A DNA stretch of 64,000 nucleotides from Unio delphinus (lineage: Eukaryota; Mollusca; Bivalvia; Unionida; Unionidae), in the NCBI GenBank assembly GCA_029339505.1, contig JAQISU010000096.1:6247501-6311500 (forward strand), in the 5' to 3' direction. Shown in pieces: positions 50,761 through 64,000 of this stretch (positions within the stretch are counted from its first letter, which is position 1; each line of letters opens with the position of its first letter). The translations under genes were made by a program, and so were the position numbers. The notes below the pieces were generated by a model, which searched no databases, had not been told where the DNA came from, and was given only the letters and a program-made list of their open reading frames with translations.

Positions 50761-52087
50761 TTAGGACTTTACAAACAAACTAATCGCTAACACCTCACCT
50801 TGTAGATCAATCAAATTATTTGATTGGTCAGTTGAGTCGGAAATTAATTCTCGTTAGCGAATTATTATGGCATCGCATGTAAACAGGATTAATTGGGTTT
50901 TCAATAATTAGGAATCCTGGAGGAGCTGTTGGTGCAAGCGAATAAAGAATATATCCTTGCTGTGCTTGATTTGATTGCTCTAGATTAGTTTGATAGCTTC
51001 CTTCAATTGCATCACATGTTAAATTGAGCGCAATCACCGTTGAAATATTCACATTGTGCGGGGTAATATGCCTACCGCCACCATCTGGATCATTATTATA
51101 TTTGAGGAGGACAGTTGAATCTAGTGTTTGTAATACCTTGATATTGTTTCTAACAATTTTTTTTAGTTCCTCGGCGTTGTATCCGGGAAACTTGAAATTA
51201 CGCAGATCGGCTTCTGTGATATTGTAACCGGTTAGGAATCGTTGTTTATTGTCGCTGTTGTCATTAATTATTGTTTGAATAATTAGTTCATTGATATATT
51301 CCATGTCAGATACAAGCTGATTTAGTATTTCAACGTGTTTTTGTGAGTTTGTTTGCCGTAGTTGTTCTAGTTGTGTTTTATGCAATTAATTAATTTCATT
51401 AAAATAACCAGTGATGTCAGTTGGCGTAAATGAAATAGTAACAGATGAGTCGGCTGTTCTTTTAATAATAAAATCCCATTGCATAGTGTTATTGTTGGTA
51501 AATATAAATCTATCGGCGATTTTTCCTTTTTTTATATCAGATAAATTATCTCGATACATGGGATTGATTTCGTGATATGATTGTACGTCTGTGGTTAAGT
51601 CGGCGGTGGCTCCGGCTGGTTTTTCAGGCCATCCTAACACTGTTCTTAACGAGCTGTTATAAATATCTACAGCGTATTCCTCTGTGCTTATTTCGATCGA
51701 CGACGAGAGCGTCGGTTCATGAACTTTAATAGCTATTTTTGATTCTTTTCCAGTGATTGATTTTATTCTAAGCTGAATTTCAGCATCGATTTGCTCAATT
51801 TGGTACGACCCAGTTGGTAACGAAACATTTTCCCAGGCTGGAGTACCATCGGGTTTATTCTTATACGAGGACACCAGTGCGTTATTTGGTTGCTGACCGC
51901 CAAATGCAACCGATCTGATATTAGGCCAGCTATGATATACTCGTAATTTTGCCAGCGCGATCTCGCGCACTGGAATCGGAGAAAGGAAGTTCACACTAAA
52001 TTGTGGGTTTGTTGATGTTATTGATATCATGCTTGTTCGTATCGGAGTGGTATTCTCCGCGATTCGTTGAAGCAGTTCGAGTGACAT
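50761..52087 (-). pseudogene. Penton-like minor capsid protein (mCP), copy 1, broken
   Basis: Begins MSLELLQRIAENTTPIRTSM. It carries the signature GSYQIEQIDAEI followed by a downstream (V)LGWPEKP block, in the position of the S(L/V)LGF motif of Polinton/adintovirus penton-like proteins. The C-terminus (NPVYMRCHNNSLTRINFRL) is followed by a D...LIDLQGE-type strand typical of these capsid proteins. The role is the fivefold vertex of an icosahedral virion. Two breaks are visible against copy 2: an in-frame stop at 51386-51388 (CAA there, TAA here) and a one-base insertion at about 50830-50834 near the end. The start overlaps the end of the membrane-protein gene by 92 nt in another frame. Confidence 0.75.
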
Positions 52088-52595
52088 TATTGTTAACGCT
52101 GTCTTCAGTTTCCAATTTCAACATCGCGGAGTTATACAACTGGGTCATCGTGGAAAATTCAACATCGGATATGAACGAATTTTCTATCGACAGCGAGATC
52201 AACTCGGATAATTTCGAGTACGCGTCAAATACCACCCGGTACCGAGCTGTATAATCGCTGATTTTTTTCTGAGAACACGATGATAACTTTTTAGTTATCG
52301 CGGTGGCGACTGCCGCGATTGTTGTTGCCGCGGAGATAGCGATTGGAACTGCAATCGGAGCCATCATGGTCACCGTCGACAAAATAACCCCGGCGCTGGC
52401 TATCACACCAGACACCGAGTACACGGTGATGTCGATGATTGCTACGCTGCGTCGGTATTTTTTCATTTTTTCACGATAACGCTCAGAAAGTGATTTCAAA
52501 TTCGCGGAAAATTCTTTCACGGTATCATATCGATATCGATGCGATTGTGATACCTCTGGGATTATTATAGGTTCAATTGATTTCATCGATGTCAT
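51996..52595 (-). CDS. Two-helix membrane protein of the virion module, copy 1 (intact)
   Basis: A 199-residue protein. Residues 23-50 are a basic helical segment with YREKMKKYRR. Residues 51-100 form two hydrophobic Ala/Ile/Val-rich helices (VSGVIASAGVILSTVTMMA and PIAVPIAISAATTIAAVATA). The second half is predicted helical and includes ISDVEFSTMTQLYNSAM, like the (I/S)SDEEF helix of a protein often encoded beside capsid genes in Polinton-like elements. Its function is unknown; a virion-membrane or entry-related role is possible. ATG at 52595 follows an AATTGAAAAC motif by 21 nt. The last 92 nt overlap the mCP start. This copy is open; the copy at 59455 is frameshifted. Confidence 0.7.
   Translation of the reverse strand: MTSMKSIEPIIIPEVSQSHRYRYDTVKEFSANLKSLSERYREKMKKYRRSVAIIDITVYSVSGVIASAGVILSTVTMMAPIAVPIAISAATTIAAVATAITKKLSSCSQKKISDYTARYRVVFDAYSKLSELISLSIENSFISDVEFSTMTQLYNSAMLKLETEDSVNNNVTRTASTNRGEYHSDTNKHDINNINKPTI
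52108..52117 (-). promoter_or_regulatory. Promoter-like motif before mCP, copy 1
   Basis: AATTGGAAAC on the minus strand, 20 nt before the ATG at 52087, inside the upstream gene. Start context TAACAATAATG. Confidence 0.5.
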
Positions 52596-52672: not shown

Positions 52673-54648
52673 TCAGCCGGAAAAATTATCTACAAGTTCT
52701 ACACACCAGGCTATTTTTGATCTAATGGTGGAGCTATCAACCGCGACGAAGTGAAAGCTTTGTGTTTTGCCAGTCTCGATAATTAACGTCGCGACGACAC
52801 CAGAGTAGGTTCTATTATCGTCCATGATCATATTAAATTGATGAATAGAAGCCCACGTTAACCTGTAGATACCATCGACCTTCGCTTCCTCCCCCCACAA
52901 GAGATTGACGGTAATTCTATGATAATTGTCGTCTCTTGTCCAATCAACGATTCCATGATTGATCGTATACACGATATTTTTAATGCCTTTGTGCGGAATC
53001 CTTACCTTTTCAAAGGCTGCTTTTAGTTTAAGAATATCCGTGTAAATATCGAGATAATTTACCTTAATTTCGTTAGAATTAATCGTCCTCCTCTCCTCCT
53101 TGTTAAAAAAGAATGAATTCAGAAGGGTTTCGAATCTAGGCCGTGATTGGTTTTTAATATACCAGTCGATGTTAGAAAATGTTGTCGTGATATCTTGAGG
53201 TTTACTGCCCTCAAAGAACTTTTTAACAATTTCTTTGGTGGGCTTTTGTTCGTCAATAGCTTTTTTACTTTCATCGATAGCCGCTTTAATTTCAGCGAGA
53301 GTCATGACATCCACAAGTGAGGTTCCAAAAAACTTACCAACGACGTCGTTAGTGGGTTTTTGTACCCTTTCAAAATTTTCTTTTAGTTTAAGAATATCAT
53401 TGTAAATATCGAGATAATTTGCCTTGATTTCGGCAGCCGTCATTATCCCCCCATTCTCCGTCTTCATAAAGAATGGAATCAGAGCCCTTCTGATTTCAAG
53501 CTGTGTTTTGTCTTTAAAATACCGGTCGATGTTAGAAAATTTTGTCGTGATATACTGGGGGTTACTGCCCTCAAAGAACTTATTAACAATTTCGCTGGTG
53601 AGCTTTTGTTCGTCAATAGCTTTTTTAATTTCAGCGAGGGTCGGGCCTGTCAGAGATGTGGTTTCAGATTCACGTGTTCTCCCCAAAAAATTATCCACGA
53701 TGGTATTAAGTGTTGCTTGTCTCACCATAAACATATTAATATCTTTGAGAGTAGTCATCGTAGATGTAGTCGGGGCACCGACGAAATTATTAGCGACGTA
53801 GGCATTGTGACTATGCTTGCCAATAAACTCGCTAATTTCAGTGAGGGTCGGGCCTGTCAGAGATGTGGTTTCAGATTCACGTGTTCTCCCCAAAAAATTA
53901 TCCACGATGGTATTAAGTGTTGCTTGTCTCACCATAAACGCATTAATATCTTTGAGAGTCATCGTAGATGTAGCCGGGACACCGAAGAAATTATTAGCGA
54001 CGTAGGCATTGTGGGTATGCCTGATAATAAACTCGCTAATTTCAGCGAGAGTCGAGTCTGCCACATGCGGGGACCCAAAAAACTTACTACCGACGTCGTT
54101 GGTGGGTTTTTGTACCTTTTCAAGATTTTCTATTATTTTAAAAATATCCGTGTAAATATCGAGATAATTTGCCTTGATTTCATTTTCATTCATCATCCTC
54201 CCCGCCTCCTTGTTAAAAAAGAATAAAGATTCAGCGAGAGTCATGCCAACCACTAGCGGGGTTCCAAAGAATTTATGTACGACATTTTTGCGAAACTATT
54301 ATAACCTCGTATATAATCATCCAGCTCACGGCCGTGGGCGGCAATCGCGTCGGTGATCGTAGACACAAGTGCGCCTGGTTTAAGTCGTCCACCGCTGGAA
54401 TACAGCGCAATAGAGTTTTCAACGGCATCGCTCTGCCGTATCAAAATGTCATCCGCGGATATATTACTGCTTTTCAATTTACCCTGGCGATCTTGAAATA
54501 CAACTATTTCGTTCGGGTCAACACGTGCTAAATTTAACGTCTCAGCGATTTCATCTTCAATTATTTTTTTTACATCTTCGATAGAACCCGCAGATGTTTC
54601 CGCGGTGGGTTTCAACATTGACAGAGATCGTCCCCAAATATCAATCAT
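52673..54648 (-). pseudogene. Modular fibre-like protein, copy 1 (one frameshift)
   Basis: The start MIDIWGRSLS is at 54648. The N-terminal domain (about 118 residues, with SIEDVKKIIEDEIAETLNL and VVFQDRQGKLKSSN) matches copy 2 closely. A one-base deletion at about 54289 shifts the frame, after which the frame is open to 52673. The long middle consists of three segment types. A contains EIKANYLDIYTDI and ends KFFGTP..MTLAEI. B contains HTHNAYVANNFFG and TLNTIVDNFLGRT. C contains KFFEGS...ITTKFSNIDRY. Their order here is A-B-B-C-A-C-A. The last roughly 110 residues (from VRIPHKG) form a distinct head that is poorly conserved with copy 2. Tail-shaft-head layout and position between protease and penton suggest a receptor-binding fibre, but this is inference; no family is recognised. 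Confidence 0.6.
53631..54045 (-). repeat. Tandem duplication of segment B within the fibre-like gene
   Basis: About 207 bp is repeated nearly identically (starts at 53631 and 53838 on the plus strand), encoding two B segments in a row. One copy has an extra Thr codon (TMTTLKD against TMTLKD). High identity indicates a recent in-frame duplication. Confidence 0.9.
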
Positions 54649-54667
54649 TATTGTTAGCGCAGCTCGT

Positions 54668-54677
54668 GTTTTCAATT
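54668..54677 (-). promoter_or_regulatory. Promoter-like motif before fibre-like gene, copy 1
   Basis: AATTGAAAAC on the minus strand, 19 nt before the ATG at 54648. Start context TAACAATAATG. Confidence 0.55.
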
Positions 54678-55110
54678 TATTAATTCTCTAAAATTACCTT
54701 GTAATTTCCCACTCGTGTATTTATTTACAACCAGATGAGGTGGTTTCTGTGACGATGAAATCTCCGCGAGGACATTTAATACTTCACGGCCACATATCGG
54801 TGGATCATTTAATTGTTGTGCTGGCAGCGTGGAATAAAAAATCGGAAACTCTTTGAGTTTCATCGAAGAATTTATATACCGCATAAACTCGTTCGGTGGG
54901 GCTAGCCCATAATGAATCGAAATAAACAATCCCACGCGGATCGATCGCGTATGCAACCCAGTGAGTTCCCGATCCGTTACTGTTATCAAGATTGATGATA
55001 CCGGTTTCAACGCGTTTAGGTTTTCTCGGTAATTGATCTCTCATAAAAAAACCTCTGAAGCTTTTTATCGCTAGTTTTTTAGCAGCATCAATTAAATCAA
55101 AATTGGACAT
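54672..55110 (-). pseudogene. Adenain-like maturation protease, copy 1 (frameshifted)
   Basis: The start MSNFDLIDAAKKLA is at 55110. The catalytic His context GTHWVAY and the FDS acidic context are present, but one extra T at about 54905-54908 shifts the frame right after FDS. The second half, including PPICGREVL with the catalytic Cys, continues in another frame to 54672. The intact relative is at 61626-62063. The family is the C5-type cysteine protease of adenoviruses, adintoviruses and Polintons, which cleaves virion proteins during maturation. Confidence 0.85.
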
Positions 55111-55122
55111 AGGGAGAATTGG

Positions 55123-55130
55123 GCTTTCAA
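55123..55130 (-). promoter_or_regulatory. Promoter-like motif before protease, copy 1
   Basis: TTGAAAGC on the minus strand, 12 nt before the ATG at 55110. It supports starting the protease at MSNFDLI, not at the upstream Met (55176). Confidence 0.4.
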
Positions 55131-55198
55131 CTAATAAACCGTTCCTGGTATTCACAGACCCTTCCCGCTGTACCATGCATACGGGGTTCCTGGTAGTC

Positions 55199-55594
55199 TT
55201 AAACCCTTTCCCTTTTTTTATATCCTTTCCCAGTTGCCTTTTTCAACGCCATCCCTGCCGCGGTCCCAACGGCTCCCAACGTCGCCGCTTTCGCCACCGC
55301 TGGGGCAGCCGCTGTAATCAATGCTGGTATTGCAGCTAACAATGGAAACATACCACCTGATTTTATCATGTTGGCGACTGCAGCCTTTGAAAATACAATT
55401 TGAACCCCTCGCTTATTCTTCAGCGCATCATTGAAATGTTTTATTTGATGATCCGTCAATGATATTTTATGTGTACCGCCGGACATCTGCGCTGGTTTTA
55501 ACGTTATTGTTGTTCCACATTCTTTAGCGGATTTTGATCGCAATTTCTTGACCTGACCATCAGTCAGCTTGACACTAAGAACACTATATGTCAT
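55199..55594 (-). CDS. pX/pVI-like minor core protein, copy 1
   Basis: A 131-residue basic protein starting MTYSVLSVKLTDGQVKKL. Two tandem LT(D)xQ half-repeats (SVKLTDGQVKKL...TITLKPAQM and KISLTDHQIKHF...VQIVFSKAAV) precede GGMFPLLAAIPALI, an Ala-rich amphipathic/hydrophobic stretch, and a basic KKATGKGYKKRER tail. This layout is characteristic of the small core/membrane-active protein of Polintons and adintoviruses, related in arrangement to adenovirus pX/pVI. It probably acts in condensing DNA or in membrane disruption during entry. AATTGAAAGC precedes the ATG by 20 nt. The C-terminus is 15 residues shorter than in copy 2, owing to changes near the stop. Confidence 0.75.
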   Translation of the reverse strand: MTYSVLSVKLTDGQVKKLRSKSAKECGTTITLKPAQMSGGTHKISLTDHQIKHFNDALKNKRGVQIVFSKAAVANMIKSGGMFPLLAAIPALITAAAPAVAKAATLGAVGTAAGMALKKATGKGYKKRERV

Positions 55595-56292
55595 TTTATT
55601 GTAAAACTATTTATGCTTTCAATTGATCTAATTGTGAATCGTTTACATATTTCCACTGGTGCATCAACGATTCTCATTCGTCCGCCAGCCCCTTCTAACA
55701 ACATTGATTTGTCGCTGAGAATGACAGCAACCGCTCTATAATCAACACCACCAGGAGCTATACGAGCCCTAAAATGTATGTCAACGACGGATTGCCTTGT
55801 TAAATCAAGATGCTCCAGCGAAAAGTAATATATCGGATATAGGTTTTTAAAATCAAGTTGCGATATTTGCAAACCAGTATCAACATTTTGATCACGGCCC
55901 ATAAATGACAGCATCCGATGATACACACGTGCTATATGGTTGTTTTCGTAATTAAGCTGTATATCCTCAGATGGTTCTTGTTGTCCGTTTATTCTCAGTG
56001 AACCCTCCTTGACTCCTAATCGATCAAATATCATATGACTGCGTTCTTGGGAGCCTAATCGATCCCGATTCTGCAGCACTATAAATATATGACGTGGAGC
56101 TGAAACGCCTTATTTTGATGTCAGGTGCCATGTAAATGTATGAGCAACATTATCCTCTTTGGCATCAGTTGTTGTTGTTAGCCAACTTATCAATGATTTG
56201 CCACCAGTGTCCATAAATGAAAGTAGCCGCTCTTCCGTGGTAATTGATGGGGTCATTACTGGCATCCACGATACTATTTTACTCAAAACAAC
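55591..56292 (-). pseudogene. Major capsid protein, copy 1: C-terminal part only
   Basis: The region encodes the last roughly 235 residues of the double-jelly-roll MCP found complete to the window edge in copy 2. Shared blocks are SHMIFDRLGVKE, NGQQEPSEDIQLNY, VYHRMLSFMGRDQNVDTG and FHFRAR-type strands (VDIHFRARIAPGGVDYRAVA). A stop replaces a Gln codon at 56110-56112. Homology with copy 2 ends sharply at 56292 in unrelated DNA, so the 5' half is lost. The C-terminus also differs: a short deletion removes the stop used in copy 2 and lets the frame run into the next gene's leader. Confidence 0.85.
55615..55624 (-). promoter_or_regulatory. Promoter-like motif before core protein, copy 1
   Basis: AATTGAAAGC on the minus strand, 20 nt before the ATG at 55594, overlapping the 3' end of MCP. 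Confidence 0.5.
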
Positions 56293-57118
56293 ATGTGATA
56301 AGAATCCGAAGCTAGGGAAAGGAGCAATCAGGAGGTGAAACTCCTTCACAATTCAAGAAAATAAATAATTATTCTTTATATTAGTATAAATGTAAGTGTT
56401 CCAGCAGGAAAGAAAAAGAGGGGTAATTCACTGTGATCATGAAATAGTCTGCTCCTCTGTCAGGTCCACTGTATGCTCCTCTTTAATCACATGTCTCTCT
56501 GCTTTTTCACACTTTAAAATTAGCAACTTTATCAACAGTTATTTTCAAAAACCCTGTTAGCTGAATTGGTGGTTTTCATTTTTGGGCTCAATTTTAGGGA
56601 TTTGCATATATGGAAAAGCATTTTCGTGAGTACTTAAATTCGTAATATTGCCTGTCAAAGTTTGCATATTAGTAGTTATTTTAATTTCATGGTTTAACCT
56701 CTACAAATACCAAAATAAAGAATAAAAAAGAATAAAACTATGCCGATGCAAATGACAGTCACATTAATGTTTAAAACAATACTAACACCTATATGAGTAG
56801 AAATCAAAGACATGGCAAGTTCAATACTTAACCAGTGCTTTTGACCAAGTGAATAACATGAGTCAATGCCAATGCAGCCAACAACACTAAAACAATACTT
56901 CCATCTCCATGAGCATAAATAAAACACCTGTCAAGATGAATCAGTTTTGCCATGTTTTTGTTTGAGTGTTCAACACCAAAATAAGCCAATGCAGCCAACA
57001 AAACCAGACCAATCAGTTATTAAAGTACATATGAATGATCTCTAACTTAAACCACTGTCCATCTAGTTGCACCATCAGTACTTTCTGACTATCATGGTGT
57101 TAACACAGTGGCTTAAGA
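56293..57118. other. Spacer between viral copies, unidentified
   Basis: Non-viral AT-rich DNA. A phrase CCAATGCAGCCAACA recurs at about 56869 and 56985 within a diverged duplication. A hydrophobic minus-strand frame (56694-56927) is not recognised. Confidence 0.45.
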
Positions 57119-57365
57119 GTGGTTGTTGTAGGGTTTAATACCATTTTTCAGCACAAAATAGGCTATACATGGTGGCCAGTATTTAAATGGTGATGAACCT
57201 GGGAAAACTCTGGAAAGAACCACTGACCCACGAGAAGCTACTGGCAAGTTTTCTCACAAATGTACATTGGCTGGATCCGAGACTCCAACCCACACAGACA
57301 GAGGTGAGATGGCAGTGATCAGTAATGGAGAGTGCTTTAGATCATTCAGCCAGTCAACGCCCCCT
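57119..57365 (-). mobile_element. tRNA-derived SINE, family 1
   Basis: The copy is complete or nearly so: GGGTTTAATACCATTTTTCA at the 3' end (plus-strand view), body TAGGCTATACATGGTGGCCA, and a tRNA-like head with TGATCTAAAGCAC and GGGTTGGAGTC on the minus strand. Confidence 0.82.
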
Positions 57366-57391
57366 TAAGAGTGGTTTGTTTGATTAGGATT

Positions 57392-57692
57392 TTTACCGTA
57401 ACTTTAACAAGTTTTCAGTCATATTGCTACGATGTCTGCAGTGAGGCAGTTTATAGTGATGTCTAGCATGGAGACATCATGCCATTGACATGTAGCATCA
57501 TGTCCCACCCAGTCATATTATCCTGACACCAGGCTGACCAGTCCTAACACTAACCTCTTAATGCTGAGCGCCAAGCGAGGCAGCTGTAGTACCATTTTTG
57601 TAAGTCTTTGGTATGACTCGGCCAAGGATCAAAAGCCATGACCTCCCACTTCCGCGGCAAATGCTCTAACCACTATGCCACCAGAGCGGTTC
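57392..57692 (-). mobile_element. tRNA-derived SINE, family 2 (with intact A box)
   Basis: On the minus strand it begins GAACCGCTCTGGTGGCATAG TGGTTAGAGC, with a perfect A box and a B-box-like CTTTTGATCC, followed by the family body (AGGTTAGTGTTAGGACTGG, TAGACATCACTATAAACTGC). It abuts the family 1 SINE. Confidence 0.82.
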
Positions 57693-57718
57693 AAAGGGTA
57701 GCACTAGGGTACAAAGGT

Positions 57719-58005
57719 ATCTATCTATCTATCTATCCCTTAGTCTTGCCGACCATTGGGGCACCACTGATGACCTGACAACCAGCTTCCTCCATTCCAA
57801 TCTGTTCTCTGATAATCTCACTGTGTCACTCGGCTTCAGTCCTGTCCTCTCTGAGATGTTATCCTCCCATCTTTTGCTCTGTCTTCCTCTCCTTCACCCT
57901 CCCTGCACAGTACCTTGCATGACTGCCTTAGCAAGCCCTGTTGATCGTGTGACATGTCCATACCATTTCATTTTGCCTTTCTTCACAATGGTCAATAGCT
58001 CTTCA
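57719..58005 (-). pseudogene. LINE reverse transcriptase C-terminus with (GATA)n tail
   Basis: The minus-strand frame reads ELLTIVKKGKMKWYGHVTRS, later GRQSKRWEDNISERTGLKPS and KLVVRSSVVPQWSARLRD before the stop. This is the classic C-terminus of a widespread LINE endonuclease-reverse transcriptase. One in-frame TGA replaces an Arg codon. The tail is GATA repeats at 57719-57736. The fragment is interrupted on its 5' side exactly where homology of the second viral copy begins. Confidence 0.85.
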
Positions 58006-58217
58006 TAAGCAGCAGAGAGGGTGAACCCTACCTTTTTAGACAAAATAAGCCTTCCTACGAAATCTCATTTAACCAAAAAAAATAAGTCTCCATTTAGCAA
58101 ACGGAGACTTTACGATTTTTTAATCAATTTTGGTCGCAACTATGTTGTCATCCATCCTCTCTGCTGCTATGGGTTAATAATTCTTTTACGATTTCAACCA
58201 AATATTTGATCCAGTCT
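58006..58217 (-). terminator. 3' flank of minor capsid gene, copy 2: nested palindromes
   Basis: Arms AGCAGCAGAGAGG (from 58009) and the reverse of CCTCTCTGCTGCT (58156-58168) frame an inner perfect hairpin AAGTCTCC/GGAGACTT (58084-58091 with 58103-58110). Layout matches copy 1 although the stem sequences differ. Confidence 0.45.
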
Positions 58218-59546
58218 TTAGGACTTTACAAACAAACTAATCGCTAACACCTCCTCTTGTAGATCAATTAAATTATTTGACTGGTCGGTGAGTCGGAAAT
58301 TAATTCTCGTTAACGAATTATTATGGCATCGCATGTAGACAGGATTAATTGGGTTTTCAATAATTAGGAATCCTGGAGGAGCTATTGGTGCAAACGAATA
58401 AAGAATATATCCCTGCTGAGCATGATTTGATTGCTCTAGATTAATTTGATAGCTTCCTTCAATTGCATCACATACTAAATTGAGCGCAATCACCGTTGAA
58501 ATATTCACATTATGCGGGGCAATATGCCTACCGCCACCATCTGGATCATTATTATACCCGAGGAGGACAGTTGAATCTGGTTTTTGTAGCGCCTTGATAT
58601 CGGTTCTAACAATTCTTGCTAGTTCATCAGCGTTGTATTTGGGGAACTTGAAATTATGCAGATTGTCTTCTGTGATATTGTAACCGGTTAGGAATCGTTG
58701 TTTATTGTCGCTGTTGTCATTAATTATTGTTTGAATAATTAGTTCATAGATATATTCCATGTCAGATATAAGTTGATTTATTATTTCAACGTGTTTTTGC
58801 GATTTTGTTTTCCGTAATTGTTCTAGTTGTGTTTCATATAATTGTTTAATTTCATTAAAATAACCACGGATGTCAGTTAGCGTAAATGAAATAGTAACAG
58901 ATGAGTCGGCTGTTCTTTTAATGATAAAATCCTATTGCAATGTGTCTTTGTTGGTAAATATAAATCTATCGGCGATTTTTCCTTTTCTTATATCAGATAA
59001 ATTATCTCGATAACTGGGATTGATTTCATGAAATGATTGTACGTCCGTGGTTAAGTCGGCAGTGGATTTTTCCGGTGGTTTTTCAGGCCATCCTAACACT
59101 GTTCTTAACGAGCTGTTATAGATATCTACAATGTATCCCTCTGTGCTTATTTCGATCGACGACGAGAGCGTCGGTTGATGAAGATTAATAGCTATTTTTG
59201 ATTCTTTTCCAGTGATTGATTTTATTCTACGCTGAATTTCAGCATTGATTTGCTTAATTTGGTACGACCCAGTTGGTAACGAAACAGTTTCTCACTCTGG
59301 AGTACCATCGGGTTTATTCTTATACGAGAACACCAGTGCGTTATTGGGTTGCTGACCGCCAAATGCAACCGATCTGATATTAGGCCAGCTATGATATACT
59401 CGTAATTTTGCCAGCGCGATCTCACGCACTGGAATCGGAGAAGGGAAGTTCACACTAAATTGTGGGGTTGTTAATGTTATTGATATCATGCTTGTTCGTA
59501 TCGGAGTGGTATTCTCCGCGATTCGTTGAAGCAGTTCGAGTGACAT
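58218..59546 (-). pseudogene. Penton-like minor capsid protein (mCP), copy 2, two nonsense changes
   Basis: One frame runs from MSLELLQRIAENTTPIRTSM at 59546 to LAISLFVKS at 58218. It shows that the two frames of copy 1 belong to a single protein of about 440 residues. Two Trp codons are now stops: TGG to TGA near 59292 (after NKPDGTPE) and TGG to TAG near 58933 (after NKDTLQ). Conserved penton signatures (GSYQIKQINAEI, LGWPEKP, RINFRLTDQSNNLIDL) are present. Start overlaps the membrane-protein gene as in copy 1. Confidence 0.78.
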
Positions 59547-60038
59547 TATTGTTAACACTGTCTTCAATTTCCAATTTCAACATCGTAGAGTTATACAACT
59601 GGGTCATCGTTGAAAATTCAACATCGGATATGAACGAATTATCTATCGACAGCGAGATCAACTCGGATAATTTCGAGTATGCGTCAAATACCACCCGGTA
59701 CCGAGCTGTATAATCACTGAGTTTTTTCTGAGAACATGATGATAATTTTTAGTTATCGCAGTGGCGACTGCAGCAATTGTTGTTGCCGCAGAGATAGCAA
59801 TTGGAACTGCAATCGAAGCCATCATGGTCACCGTCGACAAAATAACCCCGGCGCTGGCCATCACACCGGACACCGAGTACACAGTTACATCAATGGCGGT
59901 AATTCTTCTGCGGTATTTCTTTATTTTTTCACGATAATGCTCAGAAAGTGATTTCAAATTCGCGGAAAACTCTTTCACGGTGTCGAATCGATATTGCGAT
60001 GAAGGCGTCATCGATGGCGAAGCCATTGATGCCGTCAT
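59455..60038 (-). pseudogene. Two-helix membrane protein, copy 2 (frameshifted)
   Basis: Starts MTASMASPSMTPSSQYRFD at 60038. Its N-terminus differs from copy 1 before the shared TVKEFSANLKSLSE. The two hydrophobic helices are conserved. A one-base deletion in a T run near 59745-59750 breaks the frame after TAITK; the C-terminal half continues in another frame to 59455. Confidence 0.7.
59567..59576 (-). promoter_or_regulatory. Promoter-like motif before mCP, copy 2
   Basis: AATTGGAAAT on the minus strand, 20 nt before the ATG at 59546. Confidence 0.45.
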
Positions 60039-60062
60039 TGTTGTTATTTTAAACCTGATAGT

Positions 60063-60072
60063 GTTTTCAATT
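60063..60072 (-). promoter_or_regulatory. Promoter-like motif before membrane protein, copy 2
   Basis: AATTGAAAAC on the minus strand, 24 nt before the ATG at 60038. Confidence 0.5.
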
Positions 60073-61603
60073 ATCCTATTATTGAAATGGTTTTAGGATC
60101 GGATGAGGGGATACCGGATACAAATTCTATTATCCAGGGTAATGACTCCCTAATTACAGACTCGTCGGAATTGTTTATAGTAATCGTAAGCAGGATTGGT
60201 ATAGAGGGTGGAGGTGGTGGTATTTTCTCTAGTATATACATCAATGTGTTAACACCGCTGATATTTGTGTTGCTGAATCCCAAATCAAATTTACGGTGAT
60301 GTATTATTGTAAGTCGGTAGCAACCTGGTACACTAGTATGTCTGTGGCCAACACGAAGATAATTTTCTTTTCCTCGGATCCAATCAAAGGTTCCACTATC
60401 AACCGTGTACACGATGTTATTAACGGCACTTACACTATGTGGAATTTTTACCTTATTGATGGCCGCGCTAATTTCCGCGAGGGTCGGACCTGTCAGTGTG
60501 GTTTCAGACACAGGTGTTCTCCCTAAAAATTTATCCACGATGGTATTCAGTGTTGTTTGTCTCACCATAAACATATTAATATCTTTGAGAGTCATCGTAG
60601 ATGTAGCCGGGACACCAAAGAAACTATTAGCGATGTAGGCATTGTGAGTATGCTTGCCAATAAACTCGCTAATTTCAGCGAGAGTCATTCCTGCCACAAG
60701 CGGGTTTCCAAAGAACTTGCCAACAATGTCGTTAGTGGGTTTTTGATCTTCTTTTAGTTTAGAAATATCATTGTAAATCTCGAGATAATTTGCCCCGATA
60801 TCGGCGGAAGTCATCATCTTCCCATCACTCTTGAAAAAAAGTGTAGACAAAAGTCTATCAAACTGTGATTGGAGTCTAAAGTAAGTTTCGATGTTAGAAA
60901 GTTTCATCGTGATATTTTGGAGTGTAATGCCCTCAAAGAACTTATTAGCTACGTCGCTGGTGATCTTTTGTCTGTCAAGCGCGCGCTTAATTTCAACGAG
61001 AGTCATGTCTGCCACAAGCGAGTTTCCAAAAAACTTAACAACTACGTCGTTTGTGAGTTTTTGTACCTTCTCAAAATCTTCGCTTAGTTTAAAAATCTCG
61101 AGATAATTTGCCTTGATTTCTGAAGCAATCATCATCCTTCCAGCTTCCTTGTTAGTGAAGAATGAATTCAACAAGTCTTTAATTTCAGCTAGAGTCATGC
61201 CAACCACAAGCGGGGTTCCAAAGAATTTATGTACGACATTTTTGCGAAAACTATTATAACCTCGTATAAGATCATTCAGCTCACGCTCGTTGGTAGCAAT
61301 CGCGTCGGTGATCATAGACACAAGTGCGCCTGGTTTAAGTTGTCCATCGTTGGAATACAGCGCAATAGAGTTTTCAGCGGCAGCGCGATGCCGTATCAAA
61401 ATGTCATTCACGGATATATTACTGCTTTTCAATTTACCCTGGCTATCTTGAAATACAACTATTTCGTTCGGGTCAACACTTGTTAAATTTAACGTCTCAG
61501 CGATTTCATCTTCAATTATTTTTTTTACATCTTCGATAGAACCCGCAGATGTTTCCGCGGTGGGTTCCGACATTGACAGAGATTGTCCCCAAATATCAAT
61601 CAT
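60071..61603 (-). CDS. Modular fibre-like protein, copy 2 (intact, 510 residues)
   Basis: The ATG at 61603 begins MIDIWGQSLSMSEPTAET. Layout: N-terminal domain 1-118; linker with KFFGTPLVVGMTLAEI to 141; segment A 144-205; segment C 206-257; segment A 258-310; segment B 311-378; C-terminal head 379-510. The head keeps only scattered anchors with copy 1 (KxxIPH, NNIVYT, DWxR, YRLT, SGV, ExV) and includes a Pro run (IPPPPPSIP, 461-469). No signal peptide or membrane helix is seen. The A-C-A-B order differs from copy 1. The likely role is a virion spike or receptor-binding fibre; alternatives include another structural or tape-measure-like protein. No database family is recognised. Confidence 0.6.
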   Translation of the reverse strand: MIDIWGQSLSMSEPTAETSAGSIEDVKKIIEDEIAETLNLTSVDPNEIVVFQDSQGKLKSSNISVNDILIRHRAAAENSIALYSNDGQLKPGALVSMITDAIATNERELNDLIRGYNSFRKNVVHKFFGTPLVVGMTLAEIKDLLNSFFTNKEAGRMMIASEIKANYLEIFKLSEDFEKVQKLTNDVVVKFFGNSLVADMTLVEIKRALDRQKITSDVANKFFEGITLQNITMKLSNIETYFRLQSQFDRLLSTLFFKSDGKMMTSADIGANYLEIYNDISKLKEDQKPTNDIVGKFFGNPLVAGMTLAEISEFIGKHTHNAYIANSFFGVPATSTMTLKDINMFMVRQTTLNTIVDKFLGRTPVSETTLTGPTLAEISAAINKVKIPHSVSAVNNIVYTVDSGTFDWIRGKENYLRVGHRHTSVPGCYRLTIIHHRKFDLGFSNTNISGVNTLMYILEKIPPPPPSIPILLTITINNSDESVIRESLPWIIEFVSGIPSSDPKTISIIG

Positions 61604-61621: not shown

Positions 61622-61631
61622 ATTTTTAATT
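61622..61631 (-). promoter_or_regulatory. Degenerate promoter-like motif before fibre-like gene, copy 2
   Basis: AATTAAAAAT on the minus strand, 18 nt before the ATG at 61603; weaker than the copy 1 site. Confidence 0.3.
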
Positions 61632-62063
61632 TATTGATTCTCTAAAATTACTTTGTAATTTCCCACTCGTGTATTTATTTACAACCAGATGAGGTGGTTT
61701 CTGTGACGATGAAATCTCCGCGAGGACATTTAATACTTCACGGCCGCATATCGGTGGATCATTTAATTGTTGTGTTGGCAGCGTGGAATAAAAAATCGGA
61801 AACTCTTTGAGTTTCATCGAAGAATTTATATACCACATAAACTCACTTGGCGGAGCTAACCCATATGAATCAAAATAGACAATTCCACGTGGATCAATCA
61901 CGTATGCAACCCAGTGAGTTCCCGATCCGTTACTGTTATCAAGATTGATGATACCGGTTTCAACGCTGTTTGTTTTTCTCGGTAATTGATCTCTCATAAA
62001 AACCCCTCTAAAGTTTTGTATCGCTAGTTTTTTAGCAGCATCAATTAAATCAAAATTGGACAT
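61626..62063 (-). CDS. Adenain-like maturation protease, copy 2 (intact)
   Basis: A 145-residue cysteine protease of the adenovirus/adintovirus/Polinton family. Catalytic residues by motif are His50 (GTHWVAY), Asp65 (VYFDSYG), Gln99 as oxyanion residue (TQQL) and Cys106 (PPICGREVL). The Gln-Cys spacing of seven equals that in adenain. It would cleave core and capsid precursors in the assembling particle. The start was chosen at MSNFDLI (62063), because TTGAAAGC lies 12 nt upstream and copy 1 agrees from there. The frame is open upstream to 62132 but that part is the tail of the core-protein region. Confidence 0.9.
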   Translation of the reverse strand: MSNFDLIDAAKKLAIQNFRGVFMRDQLPRKTNSVETGIINLDNSNGSGTHWVAYVIDPRGIVYFDSYGLAPPSEFMWYINSSMKLKEFPIFYSTLPTQQLNDPPICGREVLNVLAEISSSQKPPHLVVNKYTSGKLQSNFRESIN

Positions 62064-62075
62064 AGGGAGAATTGG

Positions 62076-62083
62076 GCTTTCAA
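62076..62083 (-). promoter_or_regulatory. Promoter-like motif before protease, copy 2
   Basis: TTGAAAGC on the minus strand, 12 nt before the ATG at 62063, as in copy 1. Confidence 0.4.
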
Positions 62084-62109
62084 CTAATAAACCGTTCCTG
62101 GTATTCTTC

Positions 62110-62550
62110 TTAGACCATTTCTGCTGTACCATGAATACGGGGTTCCTGGTAGGTACAACCCCTTTCCCTTTTTTTATATCCTTTCCCAGTTGCCTTTTTC
62201 AACGCCATCCCTGCCGCAGTCCCAACGGCTCCCAACGCAGCCGCTTTTGCCACTGCTGGGGCAGCCGCTGCAATCAATGCTGGTATTGCAGCTAACAATG
62301 GAAATATACCACCTGATTTTATCATGTTGGCGACTGCAGCTTTCGAAAATTCTTTTTGAACTCCTCGCTTATTTTTCATTGCATCATTGAAATGTTTTAT
62401 TTGACGATCCGTCAATGATATTTTATGTGTACCGCCGGACATCTGCGCTGGTTTCAACGTTATTGTTGTTTCACATTCTTTAGCGGATTTTGATCGCAAT
62501 TTCTTGACCTGACCATCAGTCAGCTTGACACTAACAACACTATATGTCAT
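62110..62550 (-). CDS. pX/pVI-like minor core protein, copy 2
   Basis: 146 residues from MTYSVVSVKLTDGQ. It has the same two LT(D)xQ half-repeats, GGIFPLLAAIPALI hydrophobic core and basic KKATGKGYKKRER tail as copy 1, plus a C-terminal extension (GCTYQEPRIHGTAEMV). An upstream in-frame Met at 62610 is possible, but the ATG at 62550 matches copy 1 and the motif spacing. Its place between MCP and protease is the usual neighbourhood of this protein. Confidence 0.77.
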   Translation of the reverse strand: MTYSVVSVKLTDGQVKKLRSKSAKECETTITLKPAQMSGGTHKISLTDRQIKHFNDAMKNKRGVQKEFSKAAVANMIKSGGIFPLLAAIPALIAAAAPAVAKAAALGAVGTAAGMALKKATGKGYKKRERGCTYQEPRIHGTAEMV

Positions 62551-62571
62551 TTTATTGTAAAACACATTTAT

Positions 62572-62627: not shown

Positions 62628-64000
62628 TCATAGATTTTCCACTGGTGCATCAATAAGTCTCATTCGTCCGCCAGCCCCTTCAAGTAGCATTGATTTATCA
62701 CTGAGAATGACAGCAACCGCTCTATAATTAACACCACCAGGATCTATACGAGCCCTAAAATGTATGTCAACGACGGATTGACTTGTTAAATCAAGATGGT
62801 TCAGCGAAAAGTAATAAATTGGATACAAGTTCTTAAAATCGAGTTGCGATATTTGCAAACCAGTATCAACGTTTTGATCACGACCCATATATGACAGCAT
62901 CCGATGATACACACGTGCTATTTGGTTGTTTCCGTAATTAAGCTGTATATCCTCAGATGGTTCTTGTTGTCCGTTTATTCTCAGTGAAACCTCTTTTACC
63001 CCTAATCGATCAAATATCATATGACTGCGTTCTTGGGAACCTAATCGATTCCGATTCTGCAGCGCTATAAATATATGACATGGAGCTGAAATGCCTTGTT
63101 TTGATGCCAGGTGCCATGTAAATGTACCAGCGACATTATCCTCTTTGGCATCAGTTGTTTTTGTTAGCCAACTTAGCAATGATTTGCCGCCTGCATCCAT
63201 AAATGAAAGTAGCCGCTCTTCTCTGGTAATTGATGGGGTCATTACTGGCATCCACAATACTATTTTACTCAAAACAACTTTACCATCAGCGGCACCAGTA
63301 CGCCAAATTGCATCATTGTCATTGCCTTTTCGCACTAACGCGATTGTGTGTTTGGCTCCATAGATGACTTTTCTGACATTTCTGCAGAATCCAAATATGT
63401 GATGGAGTGGAATCGCACATGAAAAATATCGTTGTGGTCTTTGCAATGCTGCTACTCGTGTTGCAAACCCTAGATTGAAATTACCATTAACTTCTTTTAT
63501 AATTTCAAACGCAGCTCCGGGTCTAGCTCGACGTTCTGGATTAGCTGCTTCTTGTTGATCGGCTTCTGCATTATCTCTTGCTGTTAAAACATTAATGTAT
63601 TGAAGTTGGTCAGCGTTATCAGAGGTATCCTTTGCAAACATCATAGATGGACCAGCCGACCTTGTATAATCATCAGAATATCTTGCTAGCCCGATTATTG
63701 TTGTTGCAACATCAACTTCACGGTCTATTGATTCAATTTCTTTTCCATCAATGAGATATCTTGCACTTTCAAATAACGCCATGATGCCATTGTTGACGAA
63801 ACCAACTCGGATATTTGGATCATTTGCATATGGGGTATCAGCTGCAACATTTGTTACGAGTTTTCCATCGATTTCAATAAATGCTTCACATGGCAAAAAG
63901 TATTTACTGGTATCTTGAACTTGAAGTTCAATTCGCGATCGTAGGTCGGGTTGTATTGCATGATAGGAATAGTATTGATAATCGCGGACGGAATTGTCCT
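62628..64000 (-). CDS. Double-jelly-roll major capsid protein (hexon-like MCP), copy 2, 5' end outside
   Basis: The frame is open from the right edge to the stop at 62628 (456 residues visible, no Met needed within the window). Diagnostic blocks are RIELQVQDTSKYFLPCEAFI, IEIDGKL, NNGIMALFESARYLIDGKEI, DVATTIIGLARYSDDYTRSA, and later VYHRMLSYMGRDQNVDTG. The DTSKYFLPxxAFIxIDGKL ... NNGIMxLFxxxRYxxxGxEIE ... ATTxxGLxxYSDDY ... KDT pattern is that of the MCP of animal Polintons/adintoviruses, which forms the pseudo-hexameric capsomers. Upstream, IQPDLRS is still part of the first jelly roll, so perhaps 20-100 residues are missing. Confidence 0.88.
   Translation of the reverse strand, partial: DNSVRDYQYYSYHAIQPDLRSRIELQVQDTSKYFLPCEAFIEIDGKLVTNVAADTPYANDPNIRVGFVNNGIMALFESARYLIDGKEIESIDREVDVATTIIGLARYSDDYTRSAGPSMMFAKDTSDNADQLQYINVLTARDNAEADQQEAANPERRARPGAAFEIIKEVNGNFNLGFATRVAALQRPQRYFSCAIPLHHIFGFCRNVRKVIYGAKHTIALVRKGNDNDAIWRTGAADGKVVLSKIVLWMPVMTPSITREERLLSFMDAGGKSLLSWLTKTTDAKEDNVAGTFTWHLASKQGISAPCHIFIALQNRNRLGSQERSHMIFDRLGVKEVSLRINGQQEPSEDIQLNYGNNQIARVYHRMLSYMGRDQNVDTGLQISQLDFKNLYPIYYFSLNHLDLTSQSVVDIHFRARIDPGGVNYRAVAVILSDKSMLLEGAGGRMRLIDAPVENL

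What the first reader, a model, noticed from the sequence alone, without database searches (positions are those of the whole stretch)
52673..61603. Fibre-like viral gene with shuffled segments and a hypervariable C-terminal head
The two copies share a well-conserved N-terminal domain but differ in the order and number of three internal segment types (A-B-B-C-A-C-A in 52673-54648; A-C-A-B in 60071-61603). They end in heads that keep only scattered anchor residues, while neighbouring genes (core, protease, penton) remain close. Conserved base, repeat-built shaft of changing length and fast-diverging tip is the evolutionary pattern of receptor-binding spikes. It would be a fibre-type protein in a Polinton/adintovirus-like lineage that I cannot match to a described family. 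The segment order is seen directly; the fibre role is inference.
Basis: partly seen in the sequence, partly recalled or inferred. Interest (0 to 1): 0.9.

Follow-up and report, generated by a model that had tools for sequence, protein, structure and literature searches.

The report
Viral fibre gene with exchangeable heads
A virus-like element present many times in an animal genome, probably a freshwater mussel's, carries a gene for a likely attachment fibre whose tip exists in a few very different versions that were swapped between otherwise similar copies, which suggests that these elements recombined as infectious viruses do.

Summary
Both window copies show the stated segment orders, and segment number and order vary across the 40 genome copies I fetched (one is window copy 2). 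The tip does not drift fast; it is exchanged. Of the 40, 21 carry the head of window copy 2 (H1), 18 a distant homologous head (H2), one a variant nearest to window copy 1's head (H3). Against copy 2, H2 copies keep median protein identities of 83-93% in capsid, core, protease, base, shaft and last gene, but 33% in the head. Synonymous divergence jumps too (1.47 against 0.13-0.20), while heads of one type are as conserved as base and shaft. Head types are scattered over trees of both flanks. The head models as an eight-strand beta domain without a convincing structural match; the shaft is probably helical, built of modules of 31 to about 80 residues. Best reading: a virion attachment fibre of a Polinton-like element, with conserved anchor, length-variable shaft and a set of heads exchanged by recombination. 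The fibre function is inferred. Copy 1's gene is broken into two frames. The sample was drawn with an H1 query, so type frequencies are biased.

The parts
61241..61603 (-). fibre copy 2, conserved base (aa 1-121), N-terminal M-I-D/N-I-W-G motif and two similar motifs ending G-K/Q-L-K
   Evidence: 84-89% aa identity among four copies of this genome (both window copies, L033, L045); 58-74% from copy 2 to 10 outside relatives (56-76% from the four copies), P0001 being nearer at 83-92%
60452..61240 (-). fibre copy 2, modular shaft (A-C-A-B), modules bounded by an F-F-G hinge
   Evidence: helical in the low-confidence model
60071..60451 (-). fibre copy 2, head type H1 and stop codon
   Evidence: eight strands, mean pLDDT 74
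54253..54648 (-). fibre copy 1, N-terminal piece (base); the frame is broken after it
   Evidence: 82% aa identity to copy 2 over 121 aa
53006..54253 (-). fibre copy 1, shaft piece A-B-B-C-A-C-A, in another frame than the base
52673..53005 (-). fibre copy 1, head type H3
62628..63998 (-). double jelly-roll major capsid protein, copy 2 (runs off the window end)
   Evidence: PF21738 E 4e-19; 64 relatives at E 0.001
62110..62559 (-). core-protein-like gene, copy 2
61626..62132 (-). adenain-like protease, copy 2
   Evidence: PF00770 E 0.11, below cut-off; a His/Asp/Cys pattern typical of the family is recalled, not tested
59658..60038 (-). hydrophobic gene directly after the fibre, copy 2 (shorter frame than copy 1)
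   Evidence: SLATT_1 E 0.012, RTX E 0.001, both below cut-off
58218..58760 (-). last gene of the block, copy 2, unknown
51996..52595 (-). hydrophobic gene, copy 1
51386..52087 (-). gene at the penton position, copy 1; penton identity not shown
   Evidence: no family match above cut-off
50828..51385 (-). last gene of the block, copy 1

Best explanation
The gene encodes a virion-attached cell-attachment fibre of a Polinton-like DNA virus that is integrated many times in this genome. Shown: a conserved N-terminal base, a mid part built from repeated modules whose number and order vary between copies, and a C-terminal compact beta domain that exists in at least three diverged types on similar backbones, the exchanged tract being the head, often with the distal shaft. 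Inferred: the base anchors the protein to the capsid vertex through its N-terminal motif, the shaft is a mostly helical rod of adjustable length, the heads bind a host surface ligand, and head types were exchanged by homologous recombination between related elements sharing a cell, with base/shaft and the downstream genes as homologous arms.
For: Best-match aa identity to window copy 2, medians over 18 H2 copies: capsid 84 (n=17), core 91 (n=17), protease 85 (n=17), base 83, shaft 88, head 33 (range 22-62, median coverage 0.75), last gene 93 (n=16); 20 further H1 copies have 89 in the head (range 83-100). dN/dS within H1: base 0.64, shaft 0.46, head 0.43; within H2: 0.63, 0.62, 0.53. Between H1 and H2: head dN 0.75, dS 1.47 (32 pairs), shaft 0.098/0.203 (32 pairs), base 0.088/0.134 (70 pairs). 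Eight pairs with different heads were aligned: 85-92% up to the end of the shaft or its rearranged part, and 91-95% again from within about 120 nt of the stop codon in seven of them; in the eighth (L045/L033) the heads are partly alike and homology resumes inside the head at 89.5%. Head types on flank trees: 6 changes for 4 labels on 39 rows upstream, 7 on 35 rows downstream, 3 being the least possible; well-supported branches alone force 2 and 3 for H1. AU tests against one clade: H1 p 0.013 upstream and 2e-16 downstream; H2 0.049 and 0.011. Shaft architectures vary, base-to-head distance 939-1860 nt. The head models alone; conservation is higher in strands, 0.40, than in loops, 0.24. 14 of 40 copies keep one frame from base to head. 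Virion-gene context.
Confidence: 0.7

Rival explanations
1. The head diverges quickly by point mutation under positive selection (classical hypervariable receptor tip), without exchange of cassettes.
For: Heads share only scattered anchors and 11 representatives are 24-61% identical. H2 and H3 are 67% identical in DNA, a possible intermediate distance.
Against: Synonymous divergence jumps together with amino-acid divergence (dS 1.47 against 0.13-0.20) and heads of one type are as conserved as base and shaft. None of the 40 loci bridges H1 and H2. H1 is not one clade on either flank.
Confidence: 0.08
2. A capsid-surface or capsid-cementing helical protein (the 'Cah' class proposed for adintoviruses, adenovirus IX being the named example), whose terminal domain varies for reasons other than receptor binding, such as escape from host defence molecules.
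For: Helix-rich middle in the model; the class is described for adintoviruses (PMC11071296, passages).
Against: A separate, swapped, compact beta domain at the tip on a shaft of variable length fits an attachment fibre better (inference); nothing here excludes a cementing role for the base.
Confidence: 0.15
3. The mosaic arose after integration by gene conversion between copies in the host genome and has no meaning for virus biology.
For: Many copies in one genome and tandem copies in the window give templates for conversion.
Against: Conversion moves existing heads but does not make them. Open frames carry both H1 (10) and H2 (4) heads (L032 lacks the start of its head, L046 ends differently), pairwise dN/dS is below 1, and outside relatives have still other heads, so several heads were functional before integration. 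Conversion may add to the shuffling.
Confidence: 0.15

Closest known systems
Modular fibre proteins of protist Polinton-like viruses (PMC12220804, passages read)
   Same: Fibre gene in a Polinton-like element; repeated modules; inferred attachment role; SLATT-type membrane genes reported in the same viruses
   Different: Those carry named domains (S74 chaperone, laminin G3, collagen, adenovirus-type fibre, phage tail repeats); the window protein matches no Pfam family above cut-off. No head-type exchange on a constant backbone appeared in the passages read
Adenovirus fibre (tail, repeat shaft, knob; general knowledge)
   Same: Three-part plan with conserved base, repeat-built shaft of variable length, C-terminal beta head; gene in the late block
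   Different: No sequence match; shaft models as helix rather than beta-spiral, at low confidence; no knob stood out in the fold searches, which excludes nothing
'Cah' proteins of adintoviruses (PMC11071296, passages read)
   Same: Capsid-surface candidate with helical middle in the late gene block; diverse between species
   Different: Cah is named from a generic helical fold; exchangeable beta heads were not described in the passages read
Recombination of exposed capsid parts in human adenoviruses (PMC6010623, abstract and outline read)
   Same: Recombination between co-infecting viruses exchanging an exposed virion part, which the abstract states for a penton base loop
   Different: Here a whole terminal domain, often with adjoining shaft, seen as integrated copies in one animal genome

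Membership tests
Polinton/Maverick-type element | double jelly-roll major capsid protein | tested here: met
   PF21738 E 4e-19, 69.4 bits against cut-off 27
Polinton/Maverick-type element | A32/FtsK-type packaging ATPase | tested here: met
   PF04665 E 4.2e-11, above cut-off, in the neighbouring stretch L050; that it belongs to the same element is assumed from position
Polinton/Maverick-type element | retrovirus-like (rve) integrase | tested here: inconclusive
   PF00665 E 1.8e-4, 22.2 bits against cut-off 32.6; frame only 161 aa
Polinton/Maverick-type element | protein-primed PolB | tested here: inconclusive
   the replication gene matches SF1 helicase (AAA_19, RecD2) in its C-terminal part; no PolB family matched; its N-terminal part is unassigned
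Polinton/Maverick-type element | adenain-type cysteine protease | tested here: inconclusive
   PF00770 E 0.11, below cut-off
Polinton/Maverick-type element | penton (single jelly-roll) protein | tested here: inconclusive
   gene at that position has no family match above cut-off; not folded
Adintovirus (definition quoted from PMC11071296) | PolB with OTU-like domain, hexon recognisable by BLASTp, integrase with chromodomain | not tested
   reference sequences not at hand
Adenovirus-type fibre | knob fold | tested here: inconclusive
   only weak beta-sandwich matches; a missing match excludes nothing
Adenovirus-type fibre | homotrimer with N-terminal tail bound to penton base | not testable with these tools
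   only single-chain prediction offered
Protist PLV modular fibre | named fibre domains (PF13884, PF13385, PF01391, PF06536, PF12789, PF18338) | tested here: not met
   at E up to 1 the window protein (copy 2) matches only PF09278, E 0.019, below cut-off
Cah class | predicted helical, particularly coiled-coil, capsid-surface protein | tested here: inconclusive
   helical but pLDDT under 50 in most of the shaft; weak heptad signal

The most novel reading that the evidence does not exclude
An animal Polinton-like virus lineage has a polymorphic set of fibre heads (in effect entry types) on one backbone, kept by selection and exchanged during co-infection, so that one host genome holds a fossil record of an infectious virus switching attachment heads. 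This would be genomic evidence that these elements spread as virions using a receptor, and not only as transposons.
Probability: 0.45. Interest if true: 0.75.

Novelty: new variant of a known kind. Interest (0 to 1): 0.62.

Why it matters
[quoted passage not shown] A swapped, constrained set of tip domains on one virion backbone is what an attachment protein under shifting receptor or immune pressure would leave behind, and is hard to explain for an element that only transposes (inference). Many copies in one genome make the exchange history traceable, and the heads, 110-130 residues, are small enough to express and test.

Tried and rejected
Rejected: rapid point divergence of the head as the whole story (dS jumps too). 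Rejected for the fetched stretches: a shufflon-like store of silent heads; one search lists entries that do not have exactly one head place (places over 100 nt apart), and only the whole window, with its two heads, is listed. The counter that the same script prints ('42 43') tests nothing and is not used. Not supported: capture of a host C1q domain; no such match for the window protein at E up to 1, nor among the 25 of 33 families shown for 24 members.

Rows dropped: of 19 long frames, L009 (no label) was not counted and six (L026, L030, L032, L045, L047, L048) gave no head boundary, so shaft and head rest on 8 H1 and 4 H2 frames. Trees used 39 and 35 of 41 rows, the rest lacking 80% of a gene.

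Literature: among titles and abstract starts listed (capped lists) I saw no paper on this fibre; PMC11071308 and PMC8097293 hold none of the terms searched in them; PMC10294476, passages, names Mavericks in molluscs only as a transposon class. Not done: an unbiased census of head types, because genome search did not complete. The label H4 in scripts is L045, a broken copy whose head is nearest to H3 (71% nt).
Full report
What is there. The window is a 64 kb stretch of one contig of a 2.5 Gb genome. Its right end holds two tandem blocks of virion-type genes on the minus strand, in the order capsid protein, core-like, protease, the gene in question, a hydrophobic gene, a gene at the penton position and a last gene. 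The capsid protein matches the double jelly-roll family PF21738 at E 4e-19; its nearest relative that bears an organism name is from the freshwater mussel Sinanodonta woodiana, 70% identical over 70% of the query (taxonomy), so the host is probably a unionid mussel, which I did not test further. The adjoining stretches carry an HNH nuclease, an SF1 helicase-type replication gene, an integrase-like frame below cut-off, a phospholipase A2-like domain and an A32-type packaging ATPase. I call this a Polinton-like element; no PolB match was obtained.

Check of the observation. Copy 2 is one 510-residue frame; copy 1 is split over two frames and therefore damaged. Between the two copies the DNA is 89.3% identical from the capsid gene into the first part of the shaft and 91.1% identical from the stop codon of copy 2 onward, but no match listed covers the head.

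Same base, other heads, in one genome. A search of the window's genome with the 510-residue protein gave 215 matching stretches, a lower bound. I fetched 40 copies with flanks, about 6 kb each (L009 is window copy 2). Twenty-one carry head H1, eighteen H2, one (L045, broken) a head nearest to that of window copy 1, H3. In DNA, H1 and H2 share only a patch of about 46-80 nt near the first strand; H2 and H3 are 67% identical over 294 nt. Against window copy 2, the 18 H2 copies have median best-match protein identities of 84, 91, 85, 83, 88 and 93 in capsid (n=17), core (17), protease (17), base, shaft and last gene (16), and 33 in the head; the 20 other H1 copies have 89 in the head. The loci came from the top of a search with an H1 protein, and 38 further picked places could not be fetched (35 of them with an H1-head match), so the proportions are not frequencies.

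Exchange, not fast drift. Pairwise NG86 estimates were made on 19 long frames, fewer where no head boundary was found. Within H1, dN/dS is 0.64 for the base (45 pairs), 0.46 for the shaft and 0.43 for the head (28 pairs each); within H2 0.63 (21 pairs), 0.62 and 0.53 (6 pairs each). Between H1 and H2 the head has dN 0.75 and dS 1.47 (32 pairs), the shaft 0.098 and 0.203 (32 pairs), the base 0.088 and 0.134 (70 pairs). Selection on amino acids alone would not raise dS seven- to elevenfold in one domain; separate ancestry does. The ratios of integrated copies also hold neutral decay, which pushes them upward. Eight pairs with different heads are collinear on both sides, with one partial exception, L045 against L033, whose heads are partly alike. 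On a tree of core, protease and base (39 of 41 rows) the four labels need 6 changes, on a tree of penton-position and last gene (35 of 41 rows) 7, where 3 would do; well-supported branches alone force 2 and 3 for H1. Unlike heads are joined at high support, for example L016 (H1) with L044 (H2) upstream at 99 and window copy 1 (H3) with L019 (H1) downstream at 100. AU tests reject one H1 clade on both sides (p 0.013; 2e-16) and one H2 clade downstream (0.011), upstream only marginally (0.049). The labels are also more clustered than in shuffles, so exchange has been occasional, or many copies are close kin.

Older depth of the heads. Proteins from other records share the base (58-74% identity to copy 2 for ten of them; P0001 is nearer, 83%) and have other shafts and, where the record reaches that far, other heads. 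Eleven head representatives are 24-61% identical; H1, H2 and H3 of this one genome are 30-44% identical to each other, little or no closer than to the eight outside heads compared (24-42%), while the bases of the four copies of this genome that were compared are 84-89% identical.

Anatomy. The base has an N-terminal M-I-D/N-I-W-G motif and two similar motifs ending in G-K/Q-L-K. The shaft repeats a unit beginning with an F-F-G hinge; hinge spacings are 31, 37 and 60-81 residues, apart from a few extra motif hits, and base-to-head distance runs from 939 to 1860 nt over the copies in which a head motif was found. The patterns miss decayed modules, so single architectures in that list are minimum estimates. 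A K-I-P-H motif commonly marks the shaft-head junction. The full-length model is poor except for the head. The head alone gives eight strands, mean pLDDT 74, pTM 0.67; conservation is higher in strands (0.40) than in loops (0.24). Fold searches find no convincing relative.

How it most likely works. Shown: modular gene, constrained parts, head exchange. Inferred: the base anchors to the vertex, the shaft sets reach, the head binds a ligand, and recombination in shared flanks moves heads between co-resident elements. The hydrophobic gene next to it weakly resembles SLATT proteins, which PMC12220804 calls putative pore-forming and reports in protist Polinton-like viruses (passages); here the match is below cut-off.

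What is known. Modular fibres are described in protist Polinton-like viruses (PMC12220804, passages), helical capsid-surface 'Cah' proteins in adintoviruses (PMC11071296, passages), and recombination of an exposed capsid part in adenoviruses (PMC6010623, abstract). In the ten paper searches named under Tried and rejected I saw no description of this protein family or of fibre heads exchanged between copies of an animal Polinton. I file it as a new variant of a known kind.

Noticed in passing
L050:1599-1937 (minus), same contig as the window: Small gene with a phospholipase A2-like domain (PF08398, E 3.6e-12), a type known from parvovirus capsid proteins (recalled), beside a Polinton-like gene block.
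   Followed up: no
L049:5762-7276 and L050:2-346 (plus): Replication gene with a C-terminal SF1 helicase (AAA_19, RecD2-like) and an unassigned N-terminal part; no PolB family matched. Could be a helicase-polymerase fusion.
   Followed up: partly
L049:3731-4222 (minus): HNH endonuclease (PF13392, E 7.6e-16) between early and late genes; such genes can promote recombination nearby (recalled).
   Followed up: no
window 59658-60038 and 51996-52595 (minus): Hydrophobic gene directly after the fibre with weak RTX (both copies) and SLATT_1 (copy 2) similarity, below cut-off; copy 2's frame is shorter than copy 1's.
   Followed up: no
L047 and L048: Two copies with a short shaft (A-C-A) and H1 head also differ strongly in the hydrophobic gene (70-71% nt over 55%), as if the exchanged tract ran further downstream.
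   Followed up: no
L016, L029, L032, L035: Capsid gene only 72-73% identical to copy 2 while the other genes, heads apart, are 81-97%: the capsid gene too may have been exchanged.
   Followed up: no
G000:C121, C555, C563, C903: Fibre matches with nearly equal scores, on C121 spaced about 107 kb apart and on smaller contigs, suggesting large duplications or unresolved haplotypes.
   Followed up: no
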